This document shows, piece after piece, positions 47,696-53,234 of a stretch of DNA of 53,359 nt. Every line of letters begins with the position of its first letter. Position 1 is the first letter of the stretch. The translations under genes and the position numbers were made by a program. This DNA is from Actinomycetes bacterium. Its GTDB lineage: Bacteria; Actinomycetota; Acidimicrobiia; Acidimicrobiales; Bog-793. Where the stretch lies: NCBI GenBank assembly GCA_021838945.1, contig JAKCCH010000010.1, positions 1 to 53,359 of the forward strand, in the 5' to 3' direction. Below the pieces are notes generated by a model. The model did no database searches. It had not been told where the DNA came from and saw only the letters and a program-made list of their open reading frames with translations.

Positions 47696-47774
47696 TCGAG
47701 ACAGCCTCACCGAGAGTTGTATACGTCCAGGAGTCGGTCACGATGCCATGGAAGGGGTTGATACACCCTCTTGT

Positions 47775-47780
47775 CATACT
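47775..47780 (+). promoter_or_regulatory. Leaderless -10 box of the DUF222/HNH gene
   Basis: CATACT ends six bases before ATG 47787. The first base departs from TANNNT. Confidence 0.4.
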
Positions 47781-47786
47781 GACTCC

Positions 47787-48935
47787 ATGAGCGTGACGAA
47801 GCTGCGGGGGGCGCTGGACGAGCTGATCGAGCGGGCCGACTCGTACTGCGACGCCGAGTCGGTCACCGCCTTTTACAGGGAGCTCTCACGCCTCGAAGCC
47901 TTCGTGACAAAGATCACCGCCGGCTTCGACGCGAGCGGGGACTGGGCGACCGCAGGCGCCCGCAACTGCGCCGCTTACCTCGCGACCGAGACGCGCCTCC
48001 CGATGCGCGAGAGCAGGCGGCGGGTCCGCACCGGTCGGCGCCTGCGGGAGATGGCGCAGACGGCAGAAGCCTTCGAAGCGGGCGAGATCAGCCCCGCCCA
48101 CGTGGAGGTGTTGTGCTCGGTGCGCAACGAGAGGACCGAGAAGCACTTCGAGCGGGACGAGACGATGCTCCTCGAGCAGGCCAGGAGGCTTCGTTTCTCG
48201 CAGTTCGCACGTCTCGTCTCCTACTGGGAGCAGCACGCCGACGAGGACGGGACGAACGATGCGGCAGAAGCTCGCCGGACGCGCCGTGACGTCTCGCTCC
48301 AGGCGAGCTACGACGGGATGTTCCTCGGCAGGATCATCCTCGATCCGGTCTCGGGGGCGATCGTGCACGGCGAGCTCGACCGCCTCGAGCGTGAGCTCTT
48401 CGAAGTGGACTGGGCCGAAGCAAAAAGGCGCCTTGGACGCGACCCGATGTCCTCTGAGCTCGCCCGTCGCCCCGAGCAGCGGAGAGCCGACGCCCTCGTC
48501 GAGATGGCGACCCGCTCGCGCACGGCTCCGCACGACGGTAGGCGGCCGGCACCTTTGTTCAGCGTCTTCGTCGACTTCGAGACCCTGTCGGGGCGCATCC
48601 TCGAGCTCGCCAGTGGCATCGTCCTCACCCCTTGTGACCTCGCCCCCTTCCTCAGAAGGGCAGATCTCGAGCGTGCCGTCTTCACTCCCGAGCGGCGCGT
48701 CGAAGTGGGGCAAAAGAGCCGCTTGTTCACCGGCGCCACGAAGCGGGCGATCGAGCTTCGCGACCGGTGCTGCACCCATCCGTACTGTGAAGAGCCGCTC
48801 GATCGCTGCCAGGTCGACCACATCCTGCCCTACAGCCAAGGTGGCGAGACGACCCAGGAGAACGGGCGGCTCCTCTGCGGCTTCCACAACCGGCTGCGGG
48901 TGACGAGCCCGGCGAGGGGCGACCCGGGCGGTTGA
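47787..48935 (+). CDS. DUF222 and HNH-endonuclease domain protein (13E12-repeat-like family)
   Basis: 382 residues. Residues about 10-260 are the DUF222 helical domain (NCAAYLATETRLPMRESRRR, EAFEAGEISPAHVEVL). The C-terminal HNH part has CTHPYCEEPLDRCQVDH, then QGGETTQENGRLLCGFHN, with zinc-binding cysteines and the catalytic His. The family occurs in many copies in actinobacterial genomes and is often called a repetitive or mobile-like element, but no flanking repeats are seen. I start it at ATG 47787, six bases after CATACT; ATG 47748 is possible but lacks support. Confidence 0.87.
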   Translation: MSVTKLRGALDELIERADSYCDAESVTAFYRELSRLEAFVTKITAGFDASGDWATAGARNCAAYLATETRLPMRESRRRVRTGRRLREMAQTAEAFEAGEISPAHVEVLCSVRNERTEKHFERDETMLLEQARRLRFSQFARLVSYWEQHADEDGTNDAAEARRTRRDVSLQASYDGMFLGRIILDPVSGAIVHGELDRLERELFEVDWAEAKRRLGRDPMSSELARRPEQRRADALVEMATRSRTAPHDGRRPAPLFSVFVDFETLSGRILELASGIVLTPCDLAPFLRRADLERAVFTPERRVEVGQKSRLFTGATKRAIELRDRCCTHPYCEEPLDRCQVDHILPYSQGGETTQENGRLLCGFHNRLRVTSPARGDPGG

Positions 48936-49026: not shown

Positions 49027-49076
49027 GGCACAATCTTGACAGGAGGGGAAACCGTCCCTTCGGAGAGGGGCTGTAG

Positions 49077-49958
49077 ATGGGCCAGACGCCGTTCGACTCG
49101 CTGTTCCCCCCGTTGCCGGAGGGGTTCCTGATGCCGTTTTGGTACGCCTCGCTGCAGTCGTTGTGGGTCTACTACCCCGTGGAGCCCGACCTCCTCCGGG
49201 AGCGCATCCCCGTGCTCGACGGAGAGATGGCTCTCGAGCCAGCCCTGTTCGACATCGGGGGGAGTCGGCTCGGCCTCGCGTCGGTCGACTTCCAGATCTA
49301 CACGAGCCATGGTGGGACCTATCTCGCCACTGTTCGAGAGGTCGAGTTCAACGTCTACACCTACCCGAAGGCGCGCGAGCCACTGGTCCCGCGCATGACC
49401 CTCGACCAGTACCTCGCCGGCGAGGACCAGACGAAGTCGATCGGCGGTCTGCGCCTGCACGTGCCGTGCGACAACCCCATCGCGGTGCAGGCGGGGCAGA
49501 AGCTCTTCGGCGAGCCGAAGTACCCGGCGATCTTCACGTACACCGCTCCGACCTTGAACGATCCGAGCGTCACGTCCTGGCAGTACTCCGTCTACCAGGA
49601 CGATCAAAGCAAGCAGGGGGACCTCATCTGGTCGATGTCGGTGGAACTCGGCTCGGTGCCCGTCGTCCAGGACAACCCTTCGCCGCTCGTCGAATACGGC
49701 GTCGTGCTCGAGACCGGTGGTGTGCGCCGGCTCGTGGGCAACGAGTGGAGCTTCTACGGGCCGTTCCAGGGCTACCGGTTCGACAGCGCGAACCAGCCGC
49801 CGATCACGATCGACTACGGCAACCCCGCGACCGACCCGACGAACACCATCGCCGACCTCCAACTGCTCATCGGCCAGACGCAGCCGGTCGCAGCACAGGC
49901 GTTCCAGTCTGCTCCCGTCTCCTCCGAGTGCCGCGCCACCTATGCGGTGCCGGCATGA
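49077..49958 (+). CDS. Acetoacetate decarboxylase-like protein
   Basis: 293 residues, cytoplasmic. The fold is suggested by WVYYPVEPDLLRERIPVLDG, FDIGGSRLGLASVDFQIYT, and NPIAVQAGQKLFGEPKYPA, which parallels the GRExxGxPKK segment of acetoacetate decarboxylase that bears the Schiff-base lysine. Known acetoacetate decarboxylase has two adjacent lysines there; here only one (K-Y), so the pKa-shifting neighbour is lost and decarboxylation is uncertain. Relatives include aldolase-dehydratases that use the same lysine. Strong GGAGAGGGG precedes ATG 49077. The stop overlaps the next ATG, making it the first gene of a coupled four-gene unit. Confidence 0.75.
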   Translation: MGQTPFDSLFPPLPEGFLMPFWYASLQSLWVYYPVEPDLLRERIPVLDGEMALEPALFDIGGSRLGLASVDFQIYTSHGGTYLATVREVEFNVYTYPKAREPLVPRMTLDQYLAGEDQTKSIGGLRLHVPCDNPIAVQAGQKLFGEPKYPAIFTYTAPTLNDPSVTSWQYSVYQDDQSKQGDLIWSMSVELGSVPVVQDNPSPLVEYGVVLETGGVRRLVGNEWSFYGPFQGYRFDSANQPPITIDYGNPATDPTNTIADLQLLIGQTQPVAAQAFQSAPVSSECRATYAVPA

Positions 49959-50449
49959 ACCCGGTTCAGACCTTCCTCCAGCTCTCGGTCCACTTGACCG
50001 GGTTCAGCGAGACGGAGCTGCTCGGTAGCGGGCAGGCTCAGCCGTTCCTCGACGAGATCACGTCCATCGCAGGCGAGCGCGCCGCCGGGCAGCTGCTCGG
50101 TGTGGCCGGTCGGATCCTCGAGCAGGGCGGTGACCCGAACCAGGCGATTCAGGTCGAGATCATGAAGGACCCCTATCTCGGTCCCCTTGCTCGCAACGTC
50201 ATCGTGATGTGGTACCTCGGGCAGTGGGACCAGCTCCCGCGAGCCTGGCGGGACGCCTACGGCGCCAACCCCTCCGACATCACCCACATCGTGTCTGACG
50301 CCGCATATCGCTCCGGACTCGTCTGGGTTGCGATCGGCTCGCATCCCTCTGGGGCCAAAGCACCGGGATACGCCTCCTGGGCACAACCGCCGGCGGCGTC
50401 GCCGGCACCCCCCACCGGACCGGTCGCCTCGAGCTCGTCTCGCCCATGA
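49955..50449 (+). CDS. Sorbitol/fructose-dehydrogenase-type small subunit (FAD-SLDH family)
   Basis: 164 residues. The helical N-terminus FLQLSVHLTGFSETEL and the C-terminal VSDAAYRSGLVWVAIGSHPSGAKAPGYASWAQPP are the family's hallmarks. Such small subunits stabilise or escort the GMC-type flavoprotein subunit of membrane dehydrogenases for sorbitol, fructose or glucose. No Tat or Sec signal is visible, unlike the known exported members. It ends in a Ser/Pro-rich tail. It overlaps both neighbours by 4 bp, so it is co-made with the flavoprotein. Confidence 0.82.
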   Translation: MNPVQTFLQLSVHLTGFSETELLGSGQAQPFLDEITSIAGERAAGQLLGVAGRILEQGGDPNQAIQVEIMKDPYLGPLARNVIVMWYLGQWDQLPRAWRDAYGANPSDITHIVSDAAYRSGLVWVAIGSHPSGAKAPGYASWAQPPAASPAPPTGPVASSSSRP

Positions 50450-52242
50450 CGGACTACGACGTCGTGATCGCCGGTGCCGGGCCGGTCGGCGCGATCCTCG
50501 CCCGTCGCTTGACCAGAGCGGGCGTCTCGGTGCTCGTGCTCGAGGCCGGCGCCGCAACCGGAGCCACCTGGGAGGGCTACCAGGGCAACGTGCTCACGCA
50601 CCAGTCGGCCATCGCGAAGGTGCCCAACTCGCCGTGGCCCGACAGCCCGTTCGCACCAGAGCCGTCGGTGCTCGACATCGCGAAGATCCCGCCGGGTGGA
50701 GTCGACGCCAACCACTACCTCGTGCAGGCAGGTCCGATGCCCTTCGGGAGCGACTACACGAAGACGAGCGGTGGCACCACCATGCACTGGCTCGGCACCT
50801 CCCTGCGAATGGTGCCCGCAGATTTCGAGCTCCGCTCCCGCTACGGCCAAGGGGTCGACTGGCCTCTCTCCTATGACGACCTCGAGCCCTACTACCGCCA
50901 GGCTGAGCTCGAGCTCGGCATCGCCGCCAACGTAGAGGATCAGCGCTATCTCGGCATCTGGTTCCCGGACGACTACGTCTACCCCATGTTCCGCATCCCG
51001 CCCAGCTTCAGCGACCAGGTCTTCGCCGCTCAGTTGGACGGGTACACGATCTCGCTCGACGGCACGACCTGCGCGCTGCAGGTCACGAGCACCCCGCAGG
51101 GCCGGAACTCCATGCCCAACCCGGCCTACGACGGCGGACGCGGATACGAGCCACTGGGAGCGGTGGGGAACCCGCACCGCGGCCTTCGCTGCGAGGGGAA
51201 CGCGAGCTGCATCCCGATCTGCCCGGTGCAGGCGAAGTACAACGCGCTGAAGACGCTGGCGGCAGCGGCGGCCGAACGGATGGATCTCGTCACCCAGGCC
51301 GTCGTCTCGAAGGTGCTCCTCACGTCAGACGCCAAGCGCGTGTCAGGGCTCGTGTACCAGACCTACGACGGCTCGGGTCCCGGATCCACGCCCGTCACGG
51401 TGACGGCCGACGTCTACGTCCTTGCGACGAGCGCGATCGAGAACGCGAAGATCCTGCTCGCCTCGAACGCTGCCAACAGCAGCGGCCAGGTCGGGCTCAA
51501 CCTGATGGACCACCCGTTCGTCATGACCTGGGCGCTCATGGGGGAGAACATCGGCGCCTACCGGGGCCCCGGCTCGACCTCGGGGATCGAGATCCTGAGA
51601 GACGGGGCGTTCCGCAAGGACCGGGCTGCGTTTCGGGTGGAGCTCGCCAACTGGGGCTGGGACTTCCCGGCCTTCGGGCCGTATCTCCAGCTCGAGGAGG
51701 CGGTCGCGGGGGGAGCCTTCGGGCCGAGGCTGCGCCAGCAGATGGCAGAGGACGTGCCGCGCCAGATCCGCTTCGGTTTCGTGACAGAGCAGCTCCCGTC
51801 GCCGGCGAACAGGGTCGAGATCTCGAACGCGTGGACCGACGCCCTCGGCAACCCGCGGCCGGTCATCCACTACCAGCTCGACGACTATGTCCTGAAGAGC
51901 TTCAAAGCGGCCCGGCAGCTCAGCTCGCAGGCGTTCTCCCGGCTCGGTGCCATCGAGATGACTTCCTACAGCCCGCTGTCGCCGACCTGGATCACCTACG
52001 ACGGCCAAGGGTACTCGTGGAACGGCGCGGGACACGTGATGGGCACCCACCGCATGTCGGACCGCGCCGACCAAGGAGTCGTCGATCCCGACCAGCGGAG
52101 CTTCGACCACGACAACCTCTTCGTCGCCGGTGGCGGCTCGATGCCCACGTCCTCCGCCGCGAACCCGACGCTCACCATCGCCGCGCTCGCGTGCCGGACA
52201 GCCGACCGGATCACGGCAGATCTCGGCCGAAAGGCGTCCTGA
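50446..52242 (+). CDS. GMC family FAD oxidoreductase with three-cysteine Fe-S motif
   Basis: 598 residues. FAD-binding IAGAGPVGAILARRLT at the N-terminus, then the GMC signature GGTTMHWLGTSLRMVP. Three cysteines, Cys249-x5-Cys255-x3-Cys259 in RCEGNASCIPICPVQ, match the [3Fe-4S] site of bacterial FAD-glucose and fructose dehydrogenases. His530 in GAGHVMGTHRM and Asn573 in AANPTLTIAAL are the catalytic pair. It should oxidise an alcohol or sugar and pass electrons through the cluster. The electron acceptor is not in the window; no cytochrome c is visible. No signal peptide. It overlaps the small-subunit gene by 4 bp and the next gene by 1 bp. Confidence 0.9.
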   Translation: MTDYDVVIAGAGPVGAILARRLTRAGVSVLVLEAGAATGATWEGYQGNVLTHQSAIAKVPNSPWPDSPFAPEPSVLDIAKIPPGGVDANHYLVQAGPMPFGSDYTKTSGGTTMHWLGTSLRMVPADFELRSRYGQGVDWPLSYDDLEPYYRQAELELGIAANVEDQRYLGIWFPDDYVYPMFRIPPSFSDQVFAAQLDGYTISLDGTTCALQVTSTPQGRNSMPNPAYDGGRGYEPLGAVGNPHRGLRCEGNASCIPICPVQAKYNALKTLAAAAAERMDLVTQAVVSKVLLTSDAKRVSGLVYQTYDGSGPGSTPVTVTADVYVLATSAIENAKILLASNAANSSGQVGLNLMDHPFVMTWALMGENIGAYRGPGSTSGIEILRDGAFRKDRAAFRVELANWGWDFPAFGPYLQLEEAVAGGAFGPRLRQQMAEDVPRQIRFGFVTEQLPSPANRVEISNAWTDALGNPRPVIHYQLDDYVLKSFKAARQLSSQAFSRLGAIEMTSYSPLSPTWITYDGQGYSWNGAGHVMGTHRMSDRADQGVVDPDQRSFDHDNLFVAGGGSMPTSSAANPTLTIAALACRTADRITADLGRKAS

Positions 52243-53234
52243 TGCCGATCGACAACCTCGACCAGCTCATCGAGCACTTGCAGCTCGCGATCGAGATCGA
52301 GCACGTCACCATCCCTCCTTATCTGTGCGCCCTCTGGTCGATCCCCGAGGGACGCAACGTCGAAGCGGCCGTGGTCATCCGCGAGGTCGTCATGCAGGAG
52401 ATGCTCCACATGACCCTCATGGCGAACGTCATGAACGCCCTGGGCCACCACCCGAAGATCGCCGAGCGTGCCGTCGTCCGCGACTACCCCACCACACTGC
52501 CTCACAGCGACAAGTCCTTCCTCGTCGACCTCGCTCCATTCAGCCGCGACACCCTGGAGAGCTTCCGCAGGATCGAGCAGCCCGAGGCGATCTGCGCTCC
52601 GCCCGAGGCCGACGACTACCGGACGATCGGCCAGTTCTATGCCGCCGTCGCCGATGGACTCACGCAGTTCGCGAGCGACCCGTCGGTCTGGAAAGGCGAC
52701 CCCGCGTGGCAGGTGCTGCCGGGGACGTACTTCTACGGCGGTGGCGGCGACGCGATCCGCGTCGAGGGGCTCGAGAGCGCCCAACAAGCGATCGAGACCG
52801 CTCGCTGCCAGGGCGAAGGCATGCTCGTCGATGTCTGGGAGAACAGCCCGTCGAGAGAGGTCGCCCACTACTTCGCCTTCGACGAGCTCTGGCGCGGTCG
52901 CATGTACGTGGACGGTGACACCTATGACACCGGGCCGAGCGGGCCATATCTCTACGTCGACTACGACTGCGTGAGCCCGATGCATCCGAACCCGAAGGCG
53001 CGGGACTATCCCGTCGGGAGCTCGCAACGCGAGCTGACCGAGGTCTGCAACCGCACCTACACGAGCCTGCTCCAGCAGCTCGATGCCGCCTTCAGCGGCA
53101 CGCCGTCAGCGCTCATCGAGACGGTCCCGACGATGAAGCAACTGGAGTACGAAGCCCTTGCCCTCATGCAGATGCCCTACGGCGACGGCGAGCACGTCGC
53201 AGGCCCGGCCTTCGAGTGGAGCGACGGGCCCTAG
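52242..53234 (+). CDS. Ferritin-like di-iron protein (VioB/RebD C-terminal type, PF12902)
   Basis: 330 residues. The four-helix bundle is recognisable: Glu20 in AIEIEHVTIPPYL, Glu53-x2-His56 in VVMQEMLHMTLM, then further metal-ligand candidates Glu206-x2-His209 in REVAHYF. Together they could bind two irons or a heme-related site. The family includes the C-terminal half of VioB and RebD, which couple indole-pyruvate imines in violacein and rebeccamycin synthesis. No tryptophan oxidase or other indolocarbazole gene lies nearby. ATG 52242 shares one base with the preceding stop (TGATG), so coupling is near-certain. A C-terminal low-complexity end follows. Chemistry unknown. Confidence 0.82.
   Translation: MPIDNLDQLIEHLQLAIEIEHVTIPPYLCALWSIPEGRNVEAAVVIREVVMQEMLHMTLMANVMNALGHHPKIAERAVVRDYPTTLPHSDKSFLVDLAPFSRDTLESFRRIEQPEAICAPPEADDYRTIGQFYAAVADGLTQFASDPSVWKGDPAWQVLPGTYFYGGGGDAIRVEGLESAQQAIETARCQGEGMLVDVWENSPSREVAHYFAFDELWRGRMYVDGDTYDTGPSGPYLYVDYDCVSPMHPNPKARDYPVGSSQRELTEVCNRTYTSLLQQLDAAFSGTPSALIETVPTMKQLEYEALALMQMPYGDGEHVAGPAFEWSDGP

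What the first reader, a model, noticed from the sequence alone, without database searches (positions are those of the whole stretch)
49077..53234. Four-gene coupled cassette: acetoacetate-decarboxylase-like, sorbitol-dehydrogenase small subunit, Fe-S GMC flavoprotein and VioB/RebD-type di-iron protein
The four stop/start overlaps (4, 4 and 1 bp) show one translational unit. Seen directly: GMC with Cys249/255/259, His530 and Asn573; small subunit lacking an export signal; ferritin-like ligands E20, E53xxH56, E206xxH209; and an ADC-like protein with only one of the two neighbouring lysines. From family knowledge, the flavoprotein oxidises an alcohol or sugar, and the PF12902 group includes enzymes that couple imines. 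The pairing suggests a dedicated small-molecule or cofactor pathway: oxidation, then di-iron chemistry, then Schiff-base chemistry. I know of no described pathway with this set.
Basis: partly seen in the sequence, partly recalled or inferred. Interest (0 to 1): 0.75.

Follow-up and report, generated by a model that had tools for sequence, protein, structure and literature searches.

The report
Widespread unstudied oxidation operon in bacteria
Four overlapping genes encode a flavin/iron-sulfur dehydrogenase with its small partner, a di-iron protein and a Schiff-base-type enzyme; relatives of this set lie side by side in at least eight bacterial phyla, so it is a real conserved system, but its substrate and product are unknown.

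Summary
Four open frames at 49077-53234 overlap by 4, 4 and 1 bp (three junctions, not four). A scan of 84,980 genomes using only the ADC-like protein returned 63 loci. Of 67 loci with an intact ADC-like gene (window and plasmids included), 64 have the GMC gene beside it, nearly all with the small subunit; 25 also have the PF12902 protein. They span at least eight phyla, in several gene orders, at about 30% identity. Predicted active-site residues are invariant.

Assignments: PF12902 is firm. The GMC belongs to the FAD/[3Fe-4S] glucose/fructose dehydrogenase family. The ADC and small-subunit assignments fail Pfam's cut-offs for the window proteins but hold by fold and profile. 'VioB/RebD-type' is not supported.

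Most likely, a cytoplasmic GMC complex oxidises a polyol, sugar or cyclitol hydroxyl to a ketone, and the ADC-like protein forms a Schiff base with that product and eliminates or cleaves it. The di-iron protein is optional. Rhizobial relatives carry GH15, IolE, TIM-barrel and TPP enzymes in place of ADC, which points to a sugar- or cyclitol-like substrate.

The cassette was found in none of 247 other genomes of the order, so transfer is likely. No description turned up in open-access literature.

The parts
49077..49958 (+). ADC-superfamily protein, 293 aa; K148 = Schiff-base lysine (K115 of C. acetobutylicum ADC), E88 = E76; second lysine (K116) replaced by Y149
49955..50449 (+). Small subunit of the GMC dehydrogenase (FAD-SLDH / fructose dehydrogenase small-subunit type), 164 aa, no export signal
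50446..52242 (+). GMC oxidoreductase, 598 aa, with predicted [3Fe-4S] cysteines C249, C255, C259 and catalytic H530/N573
52242..53234 (+). PF12902 ferritin-like protein, 330 aa; predicted iron ligands E20, E53, H56, H209, probably E112; E206 variable
49062..49069 (+). GGAGAGGG, probable ribosome-binding site of the first gene, 7 nt before its ATG
   Evidence: read from the sequence; not tested
49955..49958 (+). ATGA stop/start overlap, ADC-like to small subunit
50446..50449 (+). ATGA stop/start overlap, small subunit to GMC
52240..52244 (+). TGATG stop/start overlap (1 bp), GMC to PF12902 protein

Best explanation
A horizontally spread operon for oxidising a hydroxylated small molecule in the cytoplasm and processing the resulting ketone. 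Step 1: the GMC flavoprotein, stabilised by its small subunit, oxidises a secondary alcohol of a polyol, sugar or cyclitol-like substrate. FAD electrons leave through a surface [3Fe-4S] cluster, as in Burkholderia glucose dehydrogenase and Gluconobacter fructose dehydrogenase, but without export and without the multihaem cytochrome. Step 2: the ADC-like enzyme forms a Schiff base through K148 with the keto product and catalyses elimination or carbon-carbon cleavage, not acetoacetate decarboxylation, because the second lysine and the arginine of true decarboxylases are missing. Step 3, optional: the di-iron PF12902 protein, present in 25 of 67 loci including this one, either takes the electrons and reduces O2 or oxidises the product further. 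Shown here: the conserved unit, the families, and the conserved residues and folds. Inferred: cluster type, cytoplasmic site, substrate class, Schiff-base chemistry, order of steps, role of the di-iron protein.
For: ADC-only scan returns loci with GMC beside ADC in 64 of 67. Most small-subunit-to-GMC and GMC-to-ADC junctions overlap or are short. Pairwise distances of the four families correlate, Mantel r 0.62-0.88, 0 of 2000 permutations as high, one locus per genus. GMC matches glucose dehydrogenase 6a2u at E 2.5e-76 and fructose dehydrogenase at 2.9e-61; its cysteines align with Cys212/218/222, which bind the [3Fe-4S] cluster (PMC6719666). Small subunit: fructose dehydrogenase small subunit by profile (E 0.003) and fold (probability 0.99); no signal peptides. 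ADC fold, K148/E88 equivalence and loss of K116; fold hits include MppR and Swit_4259, which from memory are aldolase-dehydratase-type, not decarboxylases. In Rhizobium and Pseudoalteromonas the related GMC-small-PF12902 set sits with GH15, IolE, TIM-barrel and TPP enzymes instead of ADC, and GMC trees mix the two kinds.
Against: No substrate or activity is known. The sugar/cyclitol hint comes from relatives that lack the ADC-like gene. Most loci lack the di-iron protein, so it cannot be the universal electron acceptor. The K115 alignment to a single ADC sequence has low hhalign probability (5%), although the motif match is clear and the fold match strong. Secreted CXXCH proteins near some loci could mean that electrons do reach the periplasm.
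Confidence: 0.45

Rival explanations
1. Small-molecule biosynthesis: GMC makes a ketone or aldehyde, the PF12902 protein carries out oxidative coupling as in violacein and rebeccamycin pathways, and the ADC-like protein closes a ring by Schiff-base chemistry as MppR does in enduracididine synthesis.
For: PF12902 and ADC-fold proteins occur in known biosynthetic pathways (MppR is the best fold hit); one ADC-like gene sits among glycosyltransferase, DegT and TauD genes on a Nocardia plasmid; many hosts are Streptomyces.
Against: No synthetase, carrier or tailoring gene recurs beside the unit; the Streptomyces form lacks PF12902; VioB similarity is marginal; the recurrent neighbours in relatives are sugar and inositol enzymes.
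Confidence: 0.25
2. True decarboxylation: GMC oxidises a beta-hydroxy acid to a beta-keto acid, and the ADC-like enzyme decarboxylates it.
For: ADC fold with the Schiff-base lysine and E76 equivalent kept; a dehydrogenase next to a decarboxylase makes simple sense.
Against: The second lysine is Y or F here, and the region of Arg29 is not conserved as arginine.
Confidence: 0.15
3. The PF12902 protein is an unrelated hitch-hiker (iron storage or detoxification) that happens to lie in the operon.
For: Absent from 42 of 67 ADC-like loci; apparently solitary on a Streptomyces plasmid.
Against: It recurs beside the same GMC and small subunit in many phyla and in two different operon types, and its distances track those of GMC (r 0.88).
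Confidence: 0.15

Closest known systems
FAD-dependent glucose dehydrogenase (Burkholderia cepacia, 6a2u) and fructose dehydrogenase (Gluconobacter, 7w2j/8jej)
   Same: GMC catalytic subunit with three aligned [3Fe-4S] cysteines plus a small subunit of the same fold
   Different: small subunit has no export signal; no multihaem cytochrome gene in the operon; ADC-like and PF12902 genes added
Acetoacetate decarboxylase superfamily (ADC, MppR, Swit_4259)
   Same: fold; Schiff-base lysine K148 and glutamate E88
   Different: second lysine and Arg29 missing; 10-14% identity in fold hits; below the PF06314 cut-off
PF12902 ferritin-like proteins (Caulobacter 3hl1)
   Same: about 330-aa stand-alone protein; E20, E53, H56 region aligned
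   Different: found beside a GMC dehydrogenase; function of 3hl1 unknown to me
VioB / RebD
   Same: weak similarity over about 100 residues
   Different: 20 bits against a cut-off of 1250; the VioB model is about 1000 positions long
Rhizobial GH15-GMC-PF12902-small subunit-IolE-TIM barrel-MBL-TPP cluster beside AHL synthase genes
   Same: same GMC, small subunit and PF12902 families
   Different: no ADC-like gene; inositol-type enzymes instead; also not described as far as I could find

Membership tests
FAD/[3Fe-4S] GMC dehydrogenase complex (GDH/FDH type) | GMC subunit with the three-cysteine cluster loop | tested here: met
   C249, C255, C259 invariant in 65/65, aligned to 6a2u Cys212/218/222
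FAD/[3Fe-4S] GMC dehydrogenase complex (GDH/FDH type) | small subunit of the same fold | tested here: met
   window protein alone is below the PF12318 cut-off
FAD/[3Fe-4S] GMC dehydrogenase complex (GDH/FDH type) | Tat-type signal on the small subunit for export | tested here: not met
   no signal in the window or in 62 relatives, by inspection of N-termini
FAD/[3Fe-4S] GMC dehydrogenase complex (GDH/FDH type) | multihaem cytochrome c subunit in the operon | tested here: not met
   none in the window up to the contig end 125 bp past the cassette; single-CXXCH secreted proteins near some relatives only
Acetoacetate decarboxylase superfamily | ADC fold | tested here: met
   14 of 14 PDB hits below E 1e-3 are ADC superfamily; model pLDDT 93.6
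Acetoacetate decarboxylase superfamily | Schiff-base lysine (K115) and glutamate (E76) | tested here: met
   K148 and E88 invariant in 67/67 and aligned
True acetoacetate decarboxylase | Lys116 and Arg29 | tested here: not met
   Y/F at 149; no arginine at the aligned position
PF12902 ferritin-like | profile match over the cut-off | tested here: met
   182.6 vs 22.3 bits
PF12902 ferritin-like | di-iron centre | not testable with these tools
   ligand pattern present; metal binding needs experiment
VioB/RebD imine-coupling enzymes | full-length family match | tested here: not met
   20 of 1250 bits, 101 residues

The most novel reading that the evidence does not exclude
A cytochrome-free, cytoplasmic redox unit in which a GMC flavoprotein hands electrons through its surface [3Fe-4S] cluster to a di-iron ferritin-like protein that activates O2, coupled to an ADC-fold enzyme that breaks down or rearranges the keto product.
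Probability: 0.2. Interest if true: 0.75.

Novelty: new variant of a known kind. Interest (0 to 1): 0.55.

Why it matters
The same enzyme set recurs in soil, marine and symbiotic bacteria of at least eight phyla, which implies a common chemical task nobody has named. It also shows a form of the [3Fe-4S] GMC dehydrogenase, a family used in glucose sensors, that appears to work inside the cell, and it gives a defined context for two poorly understood families, PF12902 and the non-decarboxylating ADC fold. The substrate can be sought directly by expressing the genes and screening alcohols.

Tried and rejected
Pfam and NCBIfam alone do not place the ADC-like and small-subunit proteins of the window; profiles and folds were needed. 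The first phylum search with the single window ADC sequence found only itself, and the more sensitive alignment added two weak partial hits in 396 genomes, so close relatives of the host are uninformative. All-against-all clustering of neighbours found no further gene shared by all loci; most large minus-strand clusters were antisense frames. Contamination of the contig was considered and judged unlikely: two neighbouring genes have 80% and 63% identical relatives in the same family and G+C is even. VioB/RebD membership was rejected. Paper searches for the gene combination found nothing; most subscription journals are not held.

Full report
What is there. Four plus-strand genes fill 49077-53234: an ADC-like protein (293 aa), a small protein (164 aa), a GMC oxidoreductase (598 aa) and a PF12902 ferritin-like protein (330 aa). 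They overlap by 4, 4 and 1 bp. The window is contig C147 of a 3.04-Mb, 178-contig genome that is about 81% complete, and the contig ends 125 bp after the last gene. Neighbouring genes have 80% and 63% identical relatives in the same family and base composition is even, so the contig is native.

Family assignment. PF12902 passes its cut-off (182.6 vs 22.3 bits) and the GMC passes PF05199 and PF00732; PF06314 (15.1 vs 29.8) and PF12318 (15.0 vs 24.2) do not pass for the window proteins. For the ADC-like protein, 14 of 41 relatives match PF06314 weakly (best E 1.2e-5). A confident model (pLDDT 93.6) finds only ADC-superfamily structures below E 1e-3: MppR, several ADCs and Swit_4259. Profile alignment places DNPIAVQAGQKLFGEPK over DNEPAIAVGRELSAYPKK of C. 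acetobutylicum ADC, so K148 corresponds to the Schiff-base lysine K115 and E88 to E76, while K116 is replaced by tyrosine or phenylalanine and Arg29 has no arginine counterpart. The roles of these residues in ADC, and the aldolase-dehydratase activity of MppR and Swit_4259, are from memory. For the small subunit, 12 of 35 relatives match PF12318 (best E 1.4e-6); the alignment profile finds the fructose dehydrogenase small subunit (E 0.003) and more weakly the glucose dehydrogenase gamma subunit; the model (pLDDT 91.2) matches fructose dehydrogenase small subunits as its three best hits. The GMC matches glucose dehydrogenase 6a2u over its full length (E 2.5e-76); the paper on that structure assigns the [3Fe-4S] cluster to Cys212, Cys218 and Cys222 and describes the small subunit as a hitchhiker carrying the export signal (PMC6719666).

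Conservation of the set. A plasmid search with the ADC-like protein gave four records, among them Ruegeria with the same four genes in the same order. Only ADC-like sequences were then used to scan 84,980 genomes; 63 loci came back. Own profiles for the four families and a tally show GMC beside ADC in 64 of 67 loci with an intact ADC-like gene (two of these have the GMC in pieces). The exceptions are a Skermanella gene beside a gene that reads like thiC, a Nocardia plasmid gene and a locus cut at its edge (L065). PF12902 is present in 25. The orders are small-GMC-ADC (37 loci, mostly Streptomyces and Kitasatospora), small-GMC-PF12902-ADC (11), ADC-small-GMC-PF12902 (8, window and Roseobacter) and small-GMC-GMC-PF12902-ADC (3). 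Phyla: Actinomycetota, Acidobacteriota, Bacteroidota, Pseudomonadota, Cyanobacteriota, Melainabacteria, Myxococcota, Bacillota. Distances of the four families correlate (Mantel r 0.62-0.88; 0 of 2000 permutations; one locus per genus). On the ADC tree the window groups with the Roseobacter loci that share its gene order (SH-aLRT 96, but long branches).

Residues. Invariant: ADC K148, E88, E90 (67); GMC C249, C255, C259, H530 (65); small subunit W86, Y87, G89, W91, W124 (62); PF12902 E20, E53, H56, E112, H209 (25), with E206 E or D in 21 of 25. No small subunit carries a visible export signal, which separates this family from the periplasmic dehydrogenases.

Relatives with other partners. The small subunit, GMC and PF12902 families are far commoner on plasmids than the ADC-like one (102, 626 and 166 records against 4). 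In Rhizobium, Pararhizobium, Pseudoalteromonas and Gloeothece they lie with GH15 proteins, and in most of the first three also with IolE- and TIM-barrel-type enzymes (in some with TPP-dependent and MBL-fold enzymes), beside AHL synthase genes in several Rhizobium plasmids. The GMCs of these loci fall among those of the ADC loci; the PF12902 proteins form their own supported group. A different, distant GMC with PF12902 occurs in Rhizobium johnstonii and Methylorubrum beside a CXXCH-type or hypothetical protein.

Mechanism. The common denominator is an alcohol-oxidising flavoprotein followed by an enzyme that handles the ketone: an ADC-fold Schiff-base enzyme in one kind of locus, IolE/TIM-barrel enzymes in the other. 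I therefore propose oxidation of a sugar, polyol or cyclitol-like hydroxyl, then Schiff-base elimination or cleavage. The di-iron protein is an optional partner, either electron sink or further oxidant. The chemistry is inferred.

Distribution and novelty. None of 247 other genomes of the order has the ADC-like gene, and in 395 other genomes of the phylum there were only two weak partial hits, so the cassette was probably acquired horizontally; loss elsewhere is not excluded. Open-access literature searches for the combination returned nothing. The parts belong to known families; the combination and the apparently cytoplasmic form are new to my knowledge.

Noticed in passing
L078 2373-12248; L079 5419-15280; L083 3002-9231: On Rhizobium plasmids the GMC family lies with GH15 proteins beside LuxR and AHL synthase genes, in two of them with PF12902, iolE, TIM-barrel, MBL and TPP genes, suggesting a quorum-controlled sugar or cyclitol pathway.
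   Followed up: partly
L007 10810-13672; L009 11549-12997; L013 10967-12427; L010 16416-18095; L074 4526-5839: Proteins of about 480 aa, several with an N-terminal export-like stretch and one CXXCH near the C-terminus (weak cytochrome P460 match in one), recur near these operons in several phyla.
   Followed up: partly
L006 4188-14221: Nocardia plasmid: a divergent ADC-like gene sits among glycosyltransferase, DegT aminotransferase and TauD dioxygenase genes, without GMC.
   Followed up: no
L003 6562-9879: In Ruegeria and Shimia a guanylate-cyclase/AAA protein of about 1100 aa lies directly upstream of the operon in all six loci, a possible regulator.
   Followed up: no
L076 7284-8993: Bradyrhizobium elkanii plasmid: the annotated GMC gene is only 240 nt long beside an intact PF12902 gene.
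   Followed up: no
window 47748-48935: Protein with a C-terminal HNH-like motif (CTHPYCEEP...CQVDHILPYSQGG), read by eye; just upstream of the cassette and probably unrelated.
   Followed up: no
L013 8361-9908: Chryseobacterium loci have a 515-aa protein without Pfam match between the PF12902 and ADC genes.
   Followed up: partly
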